A DNA stretch of 64,000 nt, taken from Romeriopsis navalis LEGE 11480. Its GTDB lineage: Bacteria; Cyanobacteriota; Cyanobacteriia; Leptolyngbyales; Leptolyngbyaceae. The stretch lies in assembly GCF_015207035.1 (NCBI RefSeq), contig NZ_JADEXQ010000017.1, positions 1-64,000 of the forward strand. The letters run 5' to 3'. The translations under genes were made by a program, and so were the position numbers. The first letter of the stretch is position 1, and each line of letters starts with the position of its first letter. Positions 18,890 to 24,792 of this stretch are shown one piece after another. The notes beneath the pieces were generated by a model. The model ran no database searches and was not told the origin of the DNA. It was given only the letters and a program-made list of their open reading frames with translations.

Positions 18890-19260
18890 GATGATTCCAG
18901 GACAAGATAATTTCAGAGCAAGCTACCGGCTGAGCTAATTATTTCTTCGACTGGCTTGCGGCTATTCCGGACTAAGCGCCCACACAGCTATTGCATCAGC
19001 GCTCATAAATTTTCTAGGCATCGGTTGACACGCTTATCTCAAAATGCCCAATTTTGGCGTGAGGGGGCACAAGATTCCGTGGAAACCGGAAAAGCAACAA
19101 GTATTTTGCTGGATCAGTCATATTCAGCAGCGCATCCCATAAGGTTTGCGCCGATCGTTGCGAACGATCATCGATCGGACAGGCCATGATTTCACGGGTA
19201 GTCGCGCCAACGGTCAAGCTATAATTGAGATTCAGGAAACTTTTCGAGGCTCAACGTTGA
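18890..19260. other. Intergenic region at left edge of the accessory island
   Basis: About 370 bp between the membrane-protein gene and the antitoxin gene. It contains the minus-strand IS1-like relic listed separately. No terminator, tRNA or intact gene is visible. The antitoxin promoter should lie in the right-hand part. Confidence 0.4.
19014..19217 (-). pseudogene. Fragment resembling an IS1-family transposase
   Basis: A 67-residue minus-strand frame without a good start reads TTREIMACPIDDRSQRSAQTLWDAL in its first half. This closely follows the IS1 InsB pattern (TTREIVG.xIGDRSxxSAxxLWDSLP) as I recall it from cyanobacterial IS1 elements. The second half no longer looks like a transposase. 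I read it as a decayed remnant with no remaining terminal repeats seen. Confidence 0.4.
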
Positions 19261-19593
19261 ATGAATCTTCCGATTTCTCCTGATTCAGGTGATTTTAATC
19301 TACATATTTTGCTGAAATCAGTGGGACCGGGGCAGTTCGAGGCTTCGGTGGCGGAGTTGAGCGACTGCCAGGTCACGGCAGCAACTAAGGAAGCAGCGAT
19401 CGAGAAGCTTCAAGCAATGATTCAGGCAAGTTTATCCGGTACTGAAATTTTGCGTGTCCCAATTACTCGTGCAGAAACTGTGACGGAACAGGAAAATCCC
19501 TGGACTGAGTTTATTGGGATGTATGAAGGTGATGAGGACTTTGAAGAAATCTCTGCATCTCTACGTGTTGAACGGGGATTGAAGCCACTTTAA
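19261..19593 (+). CDS. Antitoxin of a PIN-toxin module (HicB-like N-terminus)
   Basis: A 110-residue acidic protein. Residues ~10-60 (FEASVAELSDC, followed by a helix KEAAIEKLQAMIQASL) resemble the HicB-type antitoxin fold. The tail NPWTEFIGMYEGDEDFEEISASLRVER is acidic and amphipathic, as expected for the toxin-binding part. It starts 12 bp upstream of the PIN toxin gene on the same strand. Small antitoxin-like gene, then PIN gene, is the standard type II toxin-antitoxin order. No DNA-binding domain is obvious, so autoregulation cannot be judged. Confidence 0.7.
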   Translation: MNLPISPDSGDFNLHILLKSVGPGQFEASVAELSDCQVTAATKEAAIEKLQAMIQASLSGTEILRVPITRAETVTEQENPWTEFIGMYEGDEDFEEISASLRVERGLKPL

Positions 19594-19605
19594 GAAGAGA
19601 AGTCG

Positions 19606-20034
19606 ATGACGCTTTGGGTTTTGGATACGGATACGACTTCTCTGGTGCTTAGGCGGCATCCCCAGGTCAGTCAACAAGTTCAGTCGGCCGGTGCAAATGT
19701 TGCAATTTCCATTGTGACGGCACAAGAGCTATTTAATGGCTGGGTGGTTCGGATTAATAATGCTAAAGACAGCAATGAGCTGATTCGGCTGTACGACAGG
19801 TTTGCTGGAATTATTAGGCTCTGCCAGAAGGTTCCAGTTTTGCCGTTTGACCAAGCTGCGGCAGCTCAGCTTGAGACATTGCTGAAGTCCCATCCCAAGT
19901 TAGCGAAACAACGGTTACAGAAGGATATGCGGATTGCAGCGATCGGGCTAGCGAATAATGCCACGATCGTCACTTGCAATTATCGAGATTTCTCCTTAGT
20001 GCCGGGATTATCGATCGTGGACTGGTCTAAGTGA
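19606..20034 (+). CDS. PIN-domain toxin (VapC family)
   Basis: A 142-residue PIN nuclease. The conserved acidic residues are visible: LDTDT near the N-terminus, the Glu in TAQELFNG, the Asp in KDMRIAAIG and the Asp in NYRDFS at the end. VapC toxins cut RNA, often tRNA or rRNA, and are held by the upstream antitoxin. The stop codon at 20034 overlaps the 3' end of the broken integron integrase frame (20027) in convergent orientation, so this module abuts the point where the integrase gene was truncated. Confidence 0.82.
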
Positions 20035-20553
20035 GGCGGAGTTTCGCGATCAGCGTGATGCGGCGGGTGCCACAGCGTACAAATATTTGCTTTTGTTCAA
20101 AATCAATATCTTTCACCCGGAGCTGCATGCATTCTCGTAGTCGTAACCCACTGCCGTAAAGCAGTTGAATCAGCAGATGATGTACGCCATTCATTTGAGC
20201 CAGAATCGCTTGAACTTCTTCTGGGGTAAAGACAACGGGAAGTCGCTGGGGCCGTTTGGCACGGATTGCATTAATCCGGCATGGGAGAGTTTGTTTGAGT
20301 ACGTGGCGATAGAGGAAGAGGATCGCATTTAGTGCCTGGTTTTGGGTTGATGCGGCGACATGCGCTTCGACGGCCAAATGATTGAGAAAAGCCTCGATTT
20401 CTACGACTCCCATATCGCTTGGGTGTTGTTTGTTGTGGAATAAAATATAGCGTCGAATCCACTGGACGTAGGTTTCTTCCGTGCGATAGGAGTAATGTTT
20501 GAGACGAATCGCTTCTCTTACTTGGTCGAGGAGCTTTTGGGTGGCTGAGGCAT
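20027..20553 (-). pseudogene. intI: Integron integrase (IntI-like tyrosine recombinase), frameshifted and 3' truncated
   Basis: From ATG 20553 the frame begins MPQPPK and is then shifted by two extra bases (CCCAAAAG, near 20534-20537). In the continuing frame it reads [23 protein letters not shown] (in part) and runs through the SAM-like DNA-binding domain to the catalytic box I region [17 protein letters not shown]. It then ends after KLRLT at about residue 175 of an expected ~320. The box II His-x-x-Arg and the Tyr nucleophile are missing, so no recombinase can be made. Family: integron integrase rather than XerC/D, from the N-terminal sequence and from the attI-like region and attC-bearing cassette at its 5' side. 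Confidence 0.8.
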
Positions 20554-20704
20554 GATGATGGGATAGGCAGAAAGTTTCAGCCGATCACCCTATAATTGGA
20601 GGATAGGCAGAAAGTTTCGGCTTTTACCCTGGAGATATGCGGAACTTTTCCACCTATCACCCCAGATTTAGGTAGATATGTGGAAACTTTCCACCTACTA
20701 ATAG
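20554..20704. other. attI: attI-like recombination region with four repeats
   Basis: This lies between the integrase start and the first cassette, the place of attI. It contains two identical 19-bp direct repeats (GGATAGGCAGAAAGTTTC plus R) at 20561 and 20601, exactly 40 bp apart. Two related copies follow: AGATATGCGGAACTTTTCC (~20633) and AGATATGTGGAAACTTTCC (~20674). The last contains the perfect palindrome GTGGAAACTTTCCAC (20680-20694). Integrase-binding direct repeats beside the crossover are known for attI1. The crossover should be G20704/TT. The region should also hold the divergent cassette and integrase promoters, which I cannot place. Confidence 0.6.
20561..20621 (+). repeat. Pair of 21-bp direct repeats 40 bp apart
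   Basis: GGATAGGCAGAAAGTTTCAGC at 20561-20581 and GGATAGGCAGAAAGTTTCGGC at 20601-20621 differ at one base. They sit in the attI-like region and are candidates for integrase or regulator binding. Confidence 0.8.
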
Positions 20705-20731
20705 TTAGCACCCAAGAGTCATTGTCGAACT

Positions 20732-20989
20732 ATGGCCGAACCCGTAACAGTCACCATCGGCATCATTGCCGCGCTTGTAAGTGCCATAAGCGCGCTTGTC
20801 AGTATGTTGATGTTCTGGAGAGAAAAGAAATCCACACTCTCGATAAAGCTCAAGCGAGGCAACAAGCTCATCGAGGTTGGAAATCTCGATGAACAAAGCA
20901 CTCGACGTATCATCGAGCAGCTGACGGCGCTGTCAGAGACTGATGACATCACCCTCGAGGTTCGCGAGGGGGTCAAGAATGAGCAGTAA
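20732..20989 (+). CDS. Cassette protein A: small single-TM protein, family unknown
   Basis: An 85-residue protein. Residues ~7-29 form one membrane helix (VTIGIIAALVSAISALVSMLMFW), followed by a basic REKK stop-transfer patch. The remaining ~50 residues look like a small beta/alpha domain (STLSIKLKRGNKLIEVGNL, then a helix DEQSTRRIIEQLTAL) facing the cytoplasm. There is no enzyme motif. The start has no clear Shine-Dalgarno, common for first cassette genes. It overlaps gene B by 11 bp. A small TM-anchored strand/helix domain is a layout also seen in accessory parts of defence or signalling systems, but that likeness is only architectural. Confidence 0.72.
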   Translation: MAEPVTVTIGIIAALVSAISALVSMLMFWREKKSTLSIKLKRGNKLIEVGNLDEQSTRRIIEQLTALSETDDITLEVREGVKNEQ

Positions 20990-21425
20990 ACGTCAGTTGA
21001 AGGAATCCGCTAGTACCGCCGATGGCGTCGCGAGCGCGAGCGGTGGCGCAGCGTTGATTCTGTTTGCCCAGAACTTACCGCCCGAATTCTCAAAATGGAT
21101 CATTCCAGTAGTTCCTGCTCTTTCTATTCTGTTTGTTCCATTGCTCGCGCTCGCAAAGCAATCGATCTACAACAAATACGTCGAAAGTCAGGTGAAAGCA
21201 GAGCTGCGTAAGGTCGACAAACTCGTGGCAGACGTTGACAAAGAAATCTCCAACCTTGACGAATCTGAGCCCGGGCACAGCACCACCCTCAAGAAATTCC
21301 AAGCAGTCCGCAAGAAGCTGCGTGAAAAGAAAGTGACATTGATTCAGGAACGTGCGGACCAAATATCGATCAAACCGGAAGAGCACTACATACGGGACAT
21401 GGTAGCTTCCACTGAGCAACCGTAG
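20979..21425 (+). CDS. Cassette protein B: two-TM protein with C-terminal coiled coil, family unknown
   Basis: A 148-residue protein. I chose ATG 20979, which overlaps the end of gene A and has GAGGGGG about 7 bases upstream; a longer frame from 20943 lacks such a site. After a polar Ser/Ala/Gly-rich start, hydrophobic segments lie at ~22-32 (GGAALILFAQN) and ~40-60 (IIPVVPALSILFVPLLALA). From ~65 to 138 the chain is charged and heptad-like (KAELRKVDKLVADVDKEISNL and on), predicting a long coiled coil. The stop codon TAG is inside the attC start region. No family recognised. Translational coupling suggests that A and B act together at a membrane. Confidence 0.72.
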   Translation: MSSKRQLKESASTADGVASASGGAALILFAQNLPPEFSKWIIPVVPALSILFVPLLALAKQSIYNKYVESQVKAELRKVDKLVADVDKEISNLDESEPGHSTTLKKFQAVRKKLREKKVTLIQERADQISIKPEEHYIRDMVASTEQP

Positions 21426-21518
21426 GGTGCTAACAAAACCATGCACCGGAGTTGCCGATCCGGGCCAAATTTGAATTCCACATCGCTGGCGGCAACCCGG
21501 TGATGGTAAGCGTTACCT
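21425..21518 (+). other. attC: attC recombination site (59-base element)
   Basis: GGGTGCTAAC opens the site and AAGCGTTACC closes it. Between them the two arms pair: ACCATGCACCGGAGTTGCCG (near 21438-21457) pairs with CGGCAACCCGGTGATGGT (near 21490-21507), leaving one unpaired G and one unpaired A in the first arm. Those two extra-helical bases and the ~30-nt variable loop are the hallmark of a folded attC strand. The core is close to attC sites I recall from proteobacterial and environmental integrons. The R' core was split between this end (G/TT at 21512/21513) and the cassette start. Confidence 0.82.
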
Positions 21519-21532
21519 ACACTGCCAGCCCA

Positions 21533-21539
21533 TTCGCTT
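21533..21539. repeat. Target-site duplication, left copy (TTCGCTT)
   Basis: TTCGCTT directly before the left end of the IS256-type element is repeated directly after its right end at 22873-22879. Seven bases is near the 8-9 bp usual for the IS256 family. Confidence 0.7.
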
Positions 21540-22872
21540 GGGAGTGATCGGAATTTTGTGTAAGCGTGAAATGACTTAGTCGTTGAAGCGTTCAGGAAAC
21601 AGGATAGCAAAATGGGAGAGTGCCGCCTTCCAATCTTTGAGTGGTCGGCTCCAGCGTTTGGCAATGTGATTCATGGCGAGATACATCAGTTTGAGCACCG
21701 AGTCTTCATCGGGAAAGACGGCTTTGGTCTTGATCACCTTCCTCAAACTGCGATTGAGGGATTCAATCGCATTAGTGGTGTAGATGACTTTGCGGATGGG
21801 CATGGGGTAATCAAAAATCGGGATGATGTGTTCCCAATGGCGCAGCCAGATTTGGCTAATGGCGGGATACAGTTTATCCCACTTGGCAGCAAAGTCATCG
21901 AGTGCGACTTCGGCCGCTTCCAGGCTGGTGGCTTGATAAATCGGTTTCAGGTCAGCGGCCACGGCTTTGCTCTGTTTCCAGGGTACGTACCGTAAACAGT
22001 TGCGAATCAGATGCACGATACAGAGTTGGATCTGGGTTTGAGGATAAACTGATTCAATTGCTTGAGGAAAGCCTTTCAGCCCATCACAGCAGGCAATCAA
22101 AATATCCTGCAAACCGCGATTTTTAAGGTCTGTGAGCACTTTCAACCAGAACTTTGCGCCTTCCGCTTCGACATCGCCAATCCAGAGACCGAGTAACTCT
22201 TTATTACCATCAGCGTTGATGCCCAAGGCGACGTAGACGGCCCGTTTACTGACCCGTCCCCTTGATGTTGACGTACAAGGCATCGAGGTAAACGATGGGA
22301 TACACCGCTTCTAAGGGGCGCGATTGCCAGGCTTTGACATCGGCACTGACACTATCGGTCACCTCGCTGATTAGCGAGGCCGAAATCTTTGCGCCATAGA
22401 GCTCTTCCAGTTGCGCACTGATATCACGGACGCTGAGACCGCGCCCATAAAGGGCAATGATCTTCTCATCTAATCCGGCCAGACGGCGTTCATGCTTCGG
22501 CACCAGCACCGGTTCAAACTCGCCCTGACGGTCACGGGGGATAGCCAGTTCCAATTCTCCATGATTTGATTGCACCGTTTTCTTGGAGTAACCATTGCGG
22601 CTATTTCGGTTCGCTGATGTCGCCGCAGGCGCATCGGTATCAGATGACAGATGGTGATTCAGTTCCCCCGCTAAAGCACGCTCCACCAGCCGTTTGCTTA
22701 GTTGCTTTAGTAAGCCAGTCTCGCCCAGTACGGTTTCCGGGCTGTGATCATCGGCCAGGAGCTCATCAAGTAACTCATCCACCCGATTCGGGGCTTTCTT
22801 CTTGCGTACCATAATGCGATTTCCTCCATTATTTGGATGATAGATCGCTTACACAAAATTCTGCACACTCCC
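21540..22872 (-). mobile_element. IS256-family insertion sequence (1333 bp)
   Basis: The ends are 27-bp inverted repeats: GGGAGTG, four unmatched bases, then GAATTTTGTGTAAGCG, at 21540-21566 and, inverted, 22846-22872. A TTCGCTT duplication flanks the element on both sides. Inside is one transposase gene on the minus strand, broken by a frameshift. Removing the element restores a junction from the cassette side into the 3' end of the Uma2 gene region, so it inserted just past the integron cassette. With the frameshift it probably cannot move unless another copy supplies transposase. Confidence 0.85.
21576..22812 (-). pseudogene. IS256-family transposase, frameshifted
   Basis: The N-terminal part (22812 to 22246, 188 residues) contains RNSRNGYSKKTVQ, LSVRDISAQLEELYG and the first catalytic Asp in IVYLDALYVNIKG. 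At about 22265-22255 the frame shifts; the C-terminal part then reads GRVSKRAVYVALGINADG, carries the second Asp in IACCDGLKG and the Glu in TTNAIESLNRSLRKV, and ends near 21576. Together they make the usual ~400-residue IS256 DDE transposase, with all three acidic residues present. The shift falls in the G-rich stretch AAGGGGACGGGT. Programmed frameshifting is not known for this family, so I read it as a mutation, or a sequencing error. Confidence 0.85.
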
Positions 22873-22879
22873 TTCGCTT
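22873..22879. repeat. Target-site duplication, right copy (TTCGCTT)
   Basis: Matches 21533-21539 on the other side of the IS256-type element. It ends 6 bp before the stop codon of the Uma2 gene. Confidence 0.7.
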
Positions 22880-22885
22880 CACCAC

Positions 22886-23551
22886 TCACACTCCATCCGG
22901 GTCAACCCCCAACTCCCGCAACTTAGCCGCCAACCGCTCCGTCTTCGACTGTAACCCATCCGCCCGTTGCTTTTCCTGCACCGCCCGCTCCTCCGCTGCC
23001 AAAAGCAAATTCCCCTCGCCATCCCACCAGCGCAACCAAGGCAACTCCTGATTCAAAAATTCTCCCTGCCAAATCCCCAACTCCACACCCATCGGCGCAA
23101 TCGGATAATGGCCATGGTCATTCGGCACACATTGCTGATACCGCCCACCCACTAGCTCATACACCTCAACACTCGCCTTCTCCACTTCATAGATGGCATA
23201 AAACGGAATCCGCACCGCCTGCTCATACACCCAAAACTTACCCGCCTTCGCATCATTGCCCGCAAACAGCGAAGTCCGATCGCGTTCCTCACTCCCATCA
23301 CCGCTGGTAAATTCAATCGCGATCGCTGGCGAAATAATCTCCTTCCACAACACATACGATCGCCGACGTTCACCACTCAACAGAGGTGACACATGCGGCA
23401 CATAAAACCAGTCCGGCGCTTCCGCACCACGCTCCGGTGGGTCAACCAATCGCCAATAAATCCCGCAATCTTGCCCGATCGCATATTGCCCATCCGAATG
23501 TAACGCATCCAAAAATGGGGTAATCGAGCTAGTCAACAGATGAAAATCCAT
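22886..23551 (-). CDS. Uma2 family (DUF820) putative nuclease-fold protein
   Basis: A 221-residue Uma2 protein. The PD-(D/E)XK-like core is visible as AEAPDWFYVP (Asp) and IAIEFTSGDGSEERDR (Glu, with the Asp-rich turn), then FWVYEQAVRIPFYAIYE. A C-terminal coiled-coil tail (AAEERAVQEKQRADGLQSKTERLAAKLRELGVDPDGV) is typical of the many cyanobacterial copies. Start: ATG 23551 overlaps the stop of the upstream dihydroorotase-like gene as TGATG. A longer frame to 23647 would run 97 bp into that gene and is rejected. Biological role of the family is not established. The IS256 element lies 13 bp past its stop. Confidence 0.82.
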   Translation of the reverse strand: MDFHLLTSSITPFLDALHSDGQYAIGQDCGIYWRLVDPPERGAEAPDWFYVPHVSPLLSGERRRSYVLWKEIISPAIAIEFTSGDGSEERDRTSLFAGNDAKAGKFWVYEQAVRIPFYAIYEVEKASVEVYELVGGRYQQCVPNDHGHYPIAPMGVELGIWQGEFLNQELPWLRWWDGEGNLLLAAEERAVQEKQRADGLQSKTERLAAKLRELGVDPDGV

Positions 23552-24792
23552 CAATGGAAAAGTTTCAACGCTTTCCCCTTCACCATTTGCCCCAGCAAAT
23601 GCGTATTCTGACTCAACGAATGCAAGCTCCCACTGTTCACCTGCCACTCCGCCCCAGTGTCAAACAAAACATAACCACTAGTCTCAGATTCAACCGCTGA
23701 AACATTCTGCTGAATACAACTCGCCGCCCGCGAACTCAAAGCGGACCAAAGCTCGATCGCACTCAAGTTTCCTGTCTCAACCAATCCCTGCCACAGCATC
23801 GGCAACGCCAGCTCCAAACCCAAAGTCCCGATCGGTGCTTCCCCAAACGCCACCGTCTTCTCCTCATAGGTATAGGGACTATGATCAACGGCGATCGCGT
23901 CAATCACACCCGTCTTCACCGCTGCCACTAAAGCCTCGCGATCGGCCGCATTCCCCAACGGTGGATTCAACCGCAAATTCGGGTCATAGGTCGCCAAATC
24001 ACTCGTGTCATACAGCAAATGCAACCAAGTCGTACTCGCCGTAATCGGCATACCAGCCGCTTTCGCTTGCTGAATTAACGCCACCGATCGCGCTGTCGAA
24101 ATCCGCATCAAATGCACCGGCGTACCAATCTCCGCCACGAGTTCGATAATTGCCGATAACGCCGTCGTTTCCGCATACACCGGCTGCCCCGGCAACCCAA
24201 ACCGCAGCGCTTCGACCCCTTCTCTGGCCAAACCACCACATGCCAGTGGGACATCGTAGGGCCACAGCATAATCGGCTGCGCCATCGGCTTGGCATATTC
24301 CAAAAATCGCCGCAGCAAACCCAAATTCGTCAATGGTTTGCCATCCGCAAACCCTGCAACACCCGCCAACGCCAAATCACCCAACTCCGTCAGTTGCTCA
24401 CCTTTCACACCCAGGGTAATCGCCCCCCAAGGCTTCAAACTCACAGTCGAATCTGGTTGATGCTGCTGCAACCAGGCCACTGTGCCGGGATTATCGATCG
24501 TCGGACTGGTATTCGGCAACAAGTTTACCTGCCCAAAGCCCCCTGCCGCCGCCGCTGCCGCCAGGGATGCGAGGGTTTCGCGTTCCTCATAACCCGGCTC
24601 ACCTGATCGACTATACAAATCAATCAACGCTGGCCCAAACACCAAACCAGCACCATCGAACACTTCGACATCCGCTGGTGCATCAAGCTGTGACGCAATC
24701 GCGCTAATTTTTCCCGCGTCTAACAACACGTCCATCGGGCGATCGGACTGCGCCACCGGATCAATCACCCGCACCTGCCGAAGCAATTCCAT
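23551..24792 (-). CDS. Dihydroorotase-like protein with lost metal ligands (pyrC-type, probably non-catalytic)
   Basis: A 413-residue amidohydrolase-fold protein of class I dihydroorotase type, as shown by its ends and by LLPNTSPTIDNPGT, WPYDVPLA and VDAIAVDHSPY-like (VIDAIAVDHSPYTYEEK) segments. In active enzymes the first beta strand carries DxHVHLRxPG, where the two His bind zinc; here it reads IDLYSRSGEPG. HVST with its His ligand reads HLMRIST, and the second His is replaced (ITASTTWLHLL). The late Asp in AVDHSP remains. This is the pattern of pseudo-dihydroorotases that support aspartate transcarbamoylase in some bacteria. Whether it does so here is inference. Uma2 is translationally coupled downstream. 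Confidence 0.8.
   Translation of the reverse strand: MELLRQVRVIDPVAQSDRPMDVLLDAGKISAIASQLDAPADVEVFDGAGLVFGPALIDLYSRSGEPGYEERETLASLAAAAAAGGFGQVNLLPNTSPTIDNPGTVAWLQQHQPDSTVSLKPWGAITLGVKGEQLTELGDLALAGVAGFADGKPLTNLGLLRRFLEYAKPMAQPIMLWPYDVPLACGGLAREGVEALRFGLPGQPVYAETTALSAIIELVAEIGTPVHLMRISTARSVALIQQAKAAGMPITASTTWLHLLYDTSDLATYDPNLRLNPPLGNAADREALVAAVKTGVIDAIAVDHSPYTYEEKTVAFGEAPIGTLGLELALPMLWQGLVETGNLSAIELWSALSSRAASCIQQNVSAVESETSGYVLFDTGAEWQVNSGSLHSLSQNTHLLGQMVKGKALKLFH

What the first reader, a model, noticed from the sequence alone, without database searches (positions are those of the whole stretch)
20732..21425. Unassigned two-gene cassette encoding coupled membrane proteins
Cassette protein A (85 residues, one TM plus a small strand/helix domain) overlaps protein B (148 residues, two TM plus a long coiled coil) by 11 bp. 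Neither matches a family I know. Integron cassettes often carry toxin-antitoxin, anti-phage or drug-tolerance genes. A coupled membrane pair with a cytoplasmic coiled coil could be a membrane-acting defence pair (one sensing, one disrupting or anchoring) or a two-part transporter accessory. This is the best candidate for an undescribed system here.
Basis: partly seen in the sequence, partly recalled or inferred. Interest (0 to 1): 0.78.

Follow-up and report, generated by a model that had tools for sequence, protein, structure and literature searches.

The report
Orphan membrane gene pair in integron cassette
A cyanobacterial genome carries a mobile gene cassette with two small overlapping genes for membrane proteins that have no recognisable close relatives; the cassette is real, but whether the pair forms a defence or any other system is not shown.

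Summary
ORF A (20732-20989, 85 aa) and ORF B (20979-21425, 148 aa) overlap by 11 bp and fill one integron cassette, 20705-21512, between an attI and an attC. The boundary is supported comparatively: about 20 related attI copies in this genome and its family keep the attI sequence up to about GTTAG, then diverge, several into ORFs closed by canonical attC sites. Codon-position G+C supports coding; codon usage is atypical for the genome. A has one clear TM helix and a predicted cytoplasmic alpha/beta domain. B has one clear TM, one marginal hydrophobic segment and a coiled coil. Neither passes any family threshold. The only lead is a weak likeness of A to EACC1, the small TM component of caspase-linked conflict systems: a sub-threshold Pfam hit, and a best genomic hit that is the 5' gene of a caspase pair. 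A profile from cyanobacterial EACC1-like proteins did not recognise A. Best guess, low confidence: A is a membrane regulator coupled to effector B. The integron platform is dead (truncated integrase, adjacent IS256-like element).

The parts
20732..20989 (+). ORF A, 85 aa: one TM helix, then basic stretch and predicted strand-strand-helix-strand domain
20979..21425 (+). ORF B, 148 aa: marginal hydrophobic segment, one strong TM, long cytoplasmic coiled-coil helices; overlaps A by 11 bp
20966..20972 (+). Shine-Dalgarno-like GAGGGGG for B, inside A
   Evidence: read
20705..21512 (+). complete gene cassette (808 bp), from attI G|TTAG to attC G|TTACC
   Evidence: 10-nt inverted pair; attI paralogs diverge at this point; attC
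20634..20708 (+). conserved attI core, about 75 bp, with GATA..GGAAA..TTTCC repeats
   Evidence: about 20 copies in own genome and family ending at or near GTTAG
21425..21517 (+). attC site of the cassette, shown to the crossover and next bases; bottom strand folds with an extrahelical base
   Evidence: (z -2.8)
19913..20560 (-). truncated, interrupted integron integrase gene (intI); open part 20027-20413
   Evidence: TIGR02249 5.7e-46; model positions 1-209 of 315 with two stops, no complete intI in the genome
21549..22863 (-). insertion sequence (IS256-like by reading) just downstream of the cassette; transposase in two overlapping ORFs
   Evidence: ORFs; 17 of 18 nt terminal inverted repeats

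Best explanation
Shown: a complete integron gene cassette, inserted at a conserved cyanobacterial attI, carrying two overlapping orphan genes for small membrane proteins. Inferred: A and B form one inner-membrane complex. A is tethered by its single TM with its small alpha/beta domain in the cytoplasm and is the sensing or restraining part; B is anchored by one or two TM segments, oligomerises through its cytoplasmic coiled coil and is the membrane-acting part; overlapping genes keep the two in fixed ratio. The closest working analogy is the EACC1 type of two-gene membrane conflict module, with the caspase partner replaced by a small coiled-coil membrane protein. With the integrase broken, the cassette is a fixed resident. 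The confidence given is for the inferred mechanism; the cassette itself is near certain (about 0.95).
For: Cassette boundaries. Overlap and Shine-Dalgarno. Topology. EACC1-like plan of A: Pfam EACC1 is its best family hit (E = 0.0097, below cut-off); its best hit in 386 cyanobacterial genomes is a 141-aa TM protein directly upstream of a caspase-domain gene, found reciprocally, 23.5 bits against 9.7 for the best of 2000 shuffles. [quoted passage not shown]
Against: The similarity of A to the EACC1-like protein comes mostly from the TM part: the soluble part of that protein gives A only 2.8 bits. A profile of other cyanobacterial EACC1-like proteins does not recognise A (2.3 bits). A lacks the N-terminal alpha+beta extension of EACC1. 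B has no caspase or any other catalytic domain. No second A-B pair exists in the data searched. No interaction, toxicity or expression data.
Confidence: 0.25

Rival explanations
1. Ordinary orphan cassette: the pair gives an envelope, stress or transport-accessory trait useful in its donor and has nothing to do with phage defence.
For: Cassettes mostly carry genes of unknown function and often membrane or exported products (PMC10963911; PMC8352920). Genes read next to the related attI sites are diverse and mostly not defence-like.
Against: None specific; no known accessory family matched.
Confidence: 0.35
2. Toxin-antitoxin-like pair: B disrupts the membrane when alone and A, co-translated and membrane-bound, neutralises it, so that the cassette is kept.
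For: Two small overlapping genes on a cassette; toxin-antitoxin pairs are listed among common cassette contents (PMC10963911).
Against: No toxin-antitoxin family matched; membrane-bound antitoxins are unusual (general knowledge); single cassettes need no stabilisation in a large array here, as only one cassette remains.
Confidence: 0.15
3. Silent remnant: the genes are intact but not expressed or selected in this host, because the integron platform is dead.
For: intI truncated with stops and no complete intI in the genome; IS256-like element abuts the cassette; no sigma-70-like promoter found on the + strand; codon usage unlike the host's.
Against: Both ORFs intact; a TATAAT in the attI (about 20590) is kept in the aligned paralogs and could be a promoter missed by a strict two-hexamer scan.
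Confidence: 0.2

Closest known systems
Integron gene cassettes (attI / attC / IntI)
   Same: attI, cassette ends, attC with bottom-strand hairpin, integrase remnant and conserved boundary all present
   Different: integrase truncated; a single cassette; two genes instead of the usual one
EACC1 two-gene membrane conflict system (PF19953; Kaur et al. 2020, PMC7159879)
   Same: 5' gene encodes a small single-TM protein with an alpha/beta extension, followed closely by a second gene
   Different: A is below the Pfam cut-off and lacks the N-terminal extension; B has no caspase or cyclase domain
SLATT-type 2TM effectors of conflict systems (from memory)
   Same: B: TM-hairpin-like N-terminal half followed by cytoplasmic helices
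   Different: no SLATT model among Pfam matches of B at E up to 10; first TM of B is marginal

Membership tests
Integron gene cassette | recombination at attI: sequence conserved up to G|TT, then different cassettes | tested here: met
Integron gene cassette | attC at the 3' end whose R'' is complementary to the cassette start and whose bottom strand folds | tested here: met
Integron gene cassette | adjacent integron integrase gene | tested here: met
   present but truncated:
EACC1 conflict system | 5' component passes PF19953 or a profile of EACC1 proteins | tested here: not met
   E = 0.0097, 16.3 bits against cut-off 23.6; 2.3 bits with a profile of three cyanobacterial EACC1-like sequences
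[quoted passage not shown]
   one TM and C-terminal strand-strand-helix-strand present; N-terminal extension absent
EACC1 conflict system | 3' gene usually with a caspase (or cyclase) domain and variable effector | tested here: not met
   no such domain in B
SLATT 2TM effectors | match to a SLATT family model | tested here: not met
   no SLATT model among the Pfam matches of B
A-B as a recurring two-gene system | A and B found together in other genomes | tested here: not met
   no second pair; distant pairs below the sensitivity of these scans, and metagenomes, are not excluded
Toxin-antitoxin pair | B toxic alone, A neutralising | not testable with these tools
   needs expression experiments

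The most novel reading that the evidence does not exclude
A minimal, cassette-borne relative of the EACC1 membrane conflict systems: a shortened EACC1-like sensor coupled to a new coiled-coil membrane effector in place of the caspase protein, small enough to travel as one integron cassette.
Probability: 0.12. Interest if true: 0.62.

Novelty: new member of a known kind. Interest (0 to 1): 0.3.

Why it matters
If A-B acts as a pair it would be a compact two-protein membrane module on a cyanobacterial integron cassette, testable from one plasmid. As it stands it is one more orphan cassette. The more solid result is its setting: a strongly conserved attI family, with several copies per genome and single cassettes, in one cyanobacterial family, which offers a way to mine their cassettes.

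Tried and rejected
Family searches of A and B in Pfam, NCBIfam, PADLOC and PHROGs and sequence search of the PDB: only weak hits. Foldseek against PDB with the single-sequence models: nothing at E <= 0.001. A query with conservative substitutions, made only to widen the peptide patterns, found nothing in genome contigs or viral contigs. B hits in cyanobacteria look like coiled-coil or TM chance matches: partial matches inside long ORFs or in frames with stops. Calothrix plasmid hit of A: 29 residues inside a very long protein, rejected. The 908-aa and magnesium-chelatase-like context of the G070 hit and the RNA-methyltransferase ORF under the G145 hit made those matches chance. EACC1 Pfam search in cyanobacteria: none over cut-off, but a sub-cut-off hit in the host's own family (G185) is a real EACC1-caspase arrangement, so sub-cut-off hits can be real. 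Rfam on 19000-24000: nothing.

Full report
What is there. Reading 20732-21425 gives two ORFs on the + strand: A, 85 aa, 20732-20989, and B, 148 aa, 20979-21425, overlapping by 11 bp (ATGAGCAGTAA). A Shine-Dalgarno-like GAGGGGG sits 6 nt before the B start. G+C by codon position in both ORFs follows the pattern of the window's genes, and the called frames are the best of the three + strand frames; codon usage scores well below the host genes, as expected for acquired DNA. Length alone would not prove coding, since 5% of shuffles give an ORF of 148 aa or more. The coding case rests on the periodicity, the overlapping start and the way the two ORFs fill the cassette.

It is an integron cassette. 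A perfect 10-nt inverted pair, GTTAGCACCC and GGGTGCTAAC, marks the cassette start and the start of its attC. The attC (21425-21517) folds on the bottom strand with an extrahelical base, z = -2.8. Upstream, on the other strand, lies a truncated integron integrase (TIGR02249, E = 5.7e-46 on the open part; model positions 1-209 of 315 with two stops, and no complete intI elsewhere in the genome). The strongest evidence is comparative. The 200 bp before the cassette recur in the same genome on contigs C14 and C102; the similarity stops at GTT(AGCA) and different genes follow, a 572-aa SelO-like protein and a 278-aa methyltransferase-like protein (names by reading only). In the same family about 20 further copies share the core TCTGCCTATCACCCCTGATTTAGGTAGATATGTGGAAATTTTCCACCTACTAATTGTTAG and then diverge. 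Several are followed by a canonical attC whose R'' is complementary to that cassette's own start, clearest in L100, L102, L094, L104, L103, L107 and L091. The cassette is therefore 20705-21512, 808 bp. Terminal inverted repeats matching at 17 of 18 positions at 21549 and 22863 show an insertion sequence (IS256-like by reading of its transposase) just downstream.

What the proteins look like. A has one strong TM, then a basic stretch and a strand-strand-helix-strand unit, placed in the cytoplasm by the positive-inside rule (orientation inferred). B has a marginal hydrophobic segment, one strong TM, and two long helices predicted with fair to good confidence even without an alignment. Structure searches gave nothing.

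Relatives. B has none: no family, nothing in plasmids, phages, IMG/VR or GTDB contigs, and only chance-like matches in 386 cyanobacterial genomes. A has no close one. The concatenated pair was absent from the other 41 genomes of the order. The contig scans need exact or near-exact short peptides, so distant pairs are not excluded.

The EACC1 lead. The best Pfam hit of A is EACC1 (PF19953, E = 0.0097, below cut-off), over the TM and the strand-strand-helix unit. [quoted passage not shown] The best hit of A among 386 cyanobacterial genomes is a 141-aa TM protein directly upstream of a caspase-domain gene. The two find each other reciprocally and the score exceeds every one of 2000 shuffles (23.5 against 9.7 bits); hhalign of the two single sequences gives 93% probability. 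Against this: the soluble part of that protein alone gives A 2.8 bits; at E = 1.7e-4 per genome about 0.07 such hits are expected over 386 genomes; and a profile from three other cyanobacterial EACC1-like sequences (G185 and Pseudanabaena pPg_01, each next to a caspase gene, and Nostoc pn3) does not recognise A (2.3 bits). A is EACC1-like in plan; membership is not established.

How it may work. I commit, at low confidence, to a membrane complex in which A senses or restrains and B acts, by analogy with EACC1 modules. Shown: cassette, gene overlap, membrane segments in outline. Inferred: A-B interaction, direction of control, any toxic or defence role. The rival readings (ordinary envelope trait, toxin-antitoxin-like pair, silent remnant) together are more likely.

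Verdict. This is a new orphan member of a very common kind, integron cassettes with membrane proteins of unknown function.

Noticed in passing
window 20500-20710; L055, L056; L091-L107 in relatives: A conserved attI-like core of about 75 bp occurs many times per genome in this cyanobacterial family (at least 10 matches in one genome, G392), most copies without an integrase nearby, each followed by a different sequence and several by canonical attC sites: single-cassette integrons scattered over the genome.
   Followed up: partly
window 20561-20697: Repeats GATAGGCAGAAAGTTTC / GATATGTGGAAACTTTCC, four copies 32-41 bp apart, between intI and the cassette, with a TATAAT kept in the aligned paralogs; candidate integrase-binding repeats and cassette promoter.
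   Followed up: partly
window 19261-20034 (+): A 110-aa protein and a PIN-domain VapC-like protein (NF047863 E = 9.7e-13), probably a toxin-antitoxin pair, sit where the 3' end of the integrase gene should be.
   Followed up: no
window 21549-22863: IS256-like transposase split over two overlapping ORFs in different frames, with good terminal repeats but no matching target duplication seen by eye; possibly frameshifted.
   Followed up: no
L037 4785-9077 (-): An EACC1-like small TM protein next to a caspase protein of 1287 aa whose later part reads as Hsp70/actin-like, followed by a long TM coiled-coil protein of 729 aa, in a cyanobacterium; the EACC1-like protein misses the Pfam EACC1 model.
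   Followed up: partly
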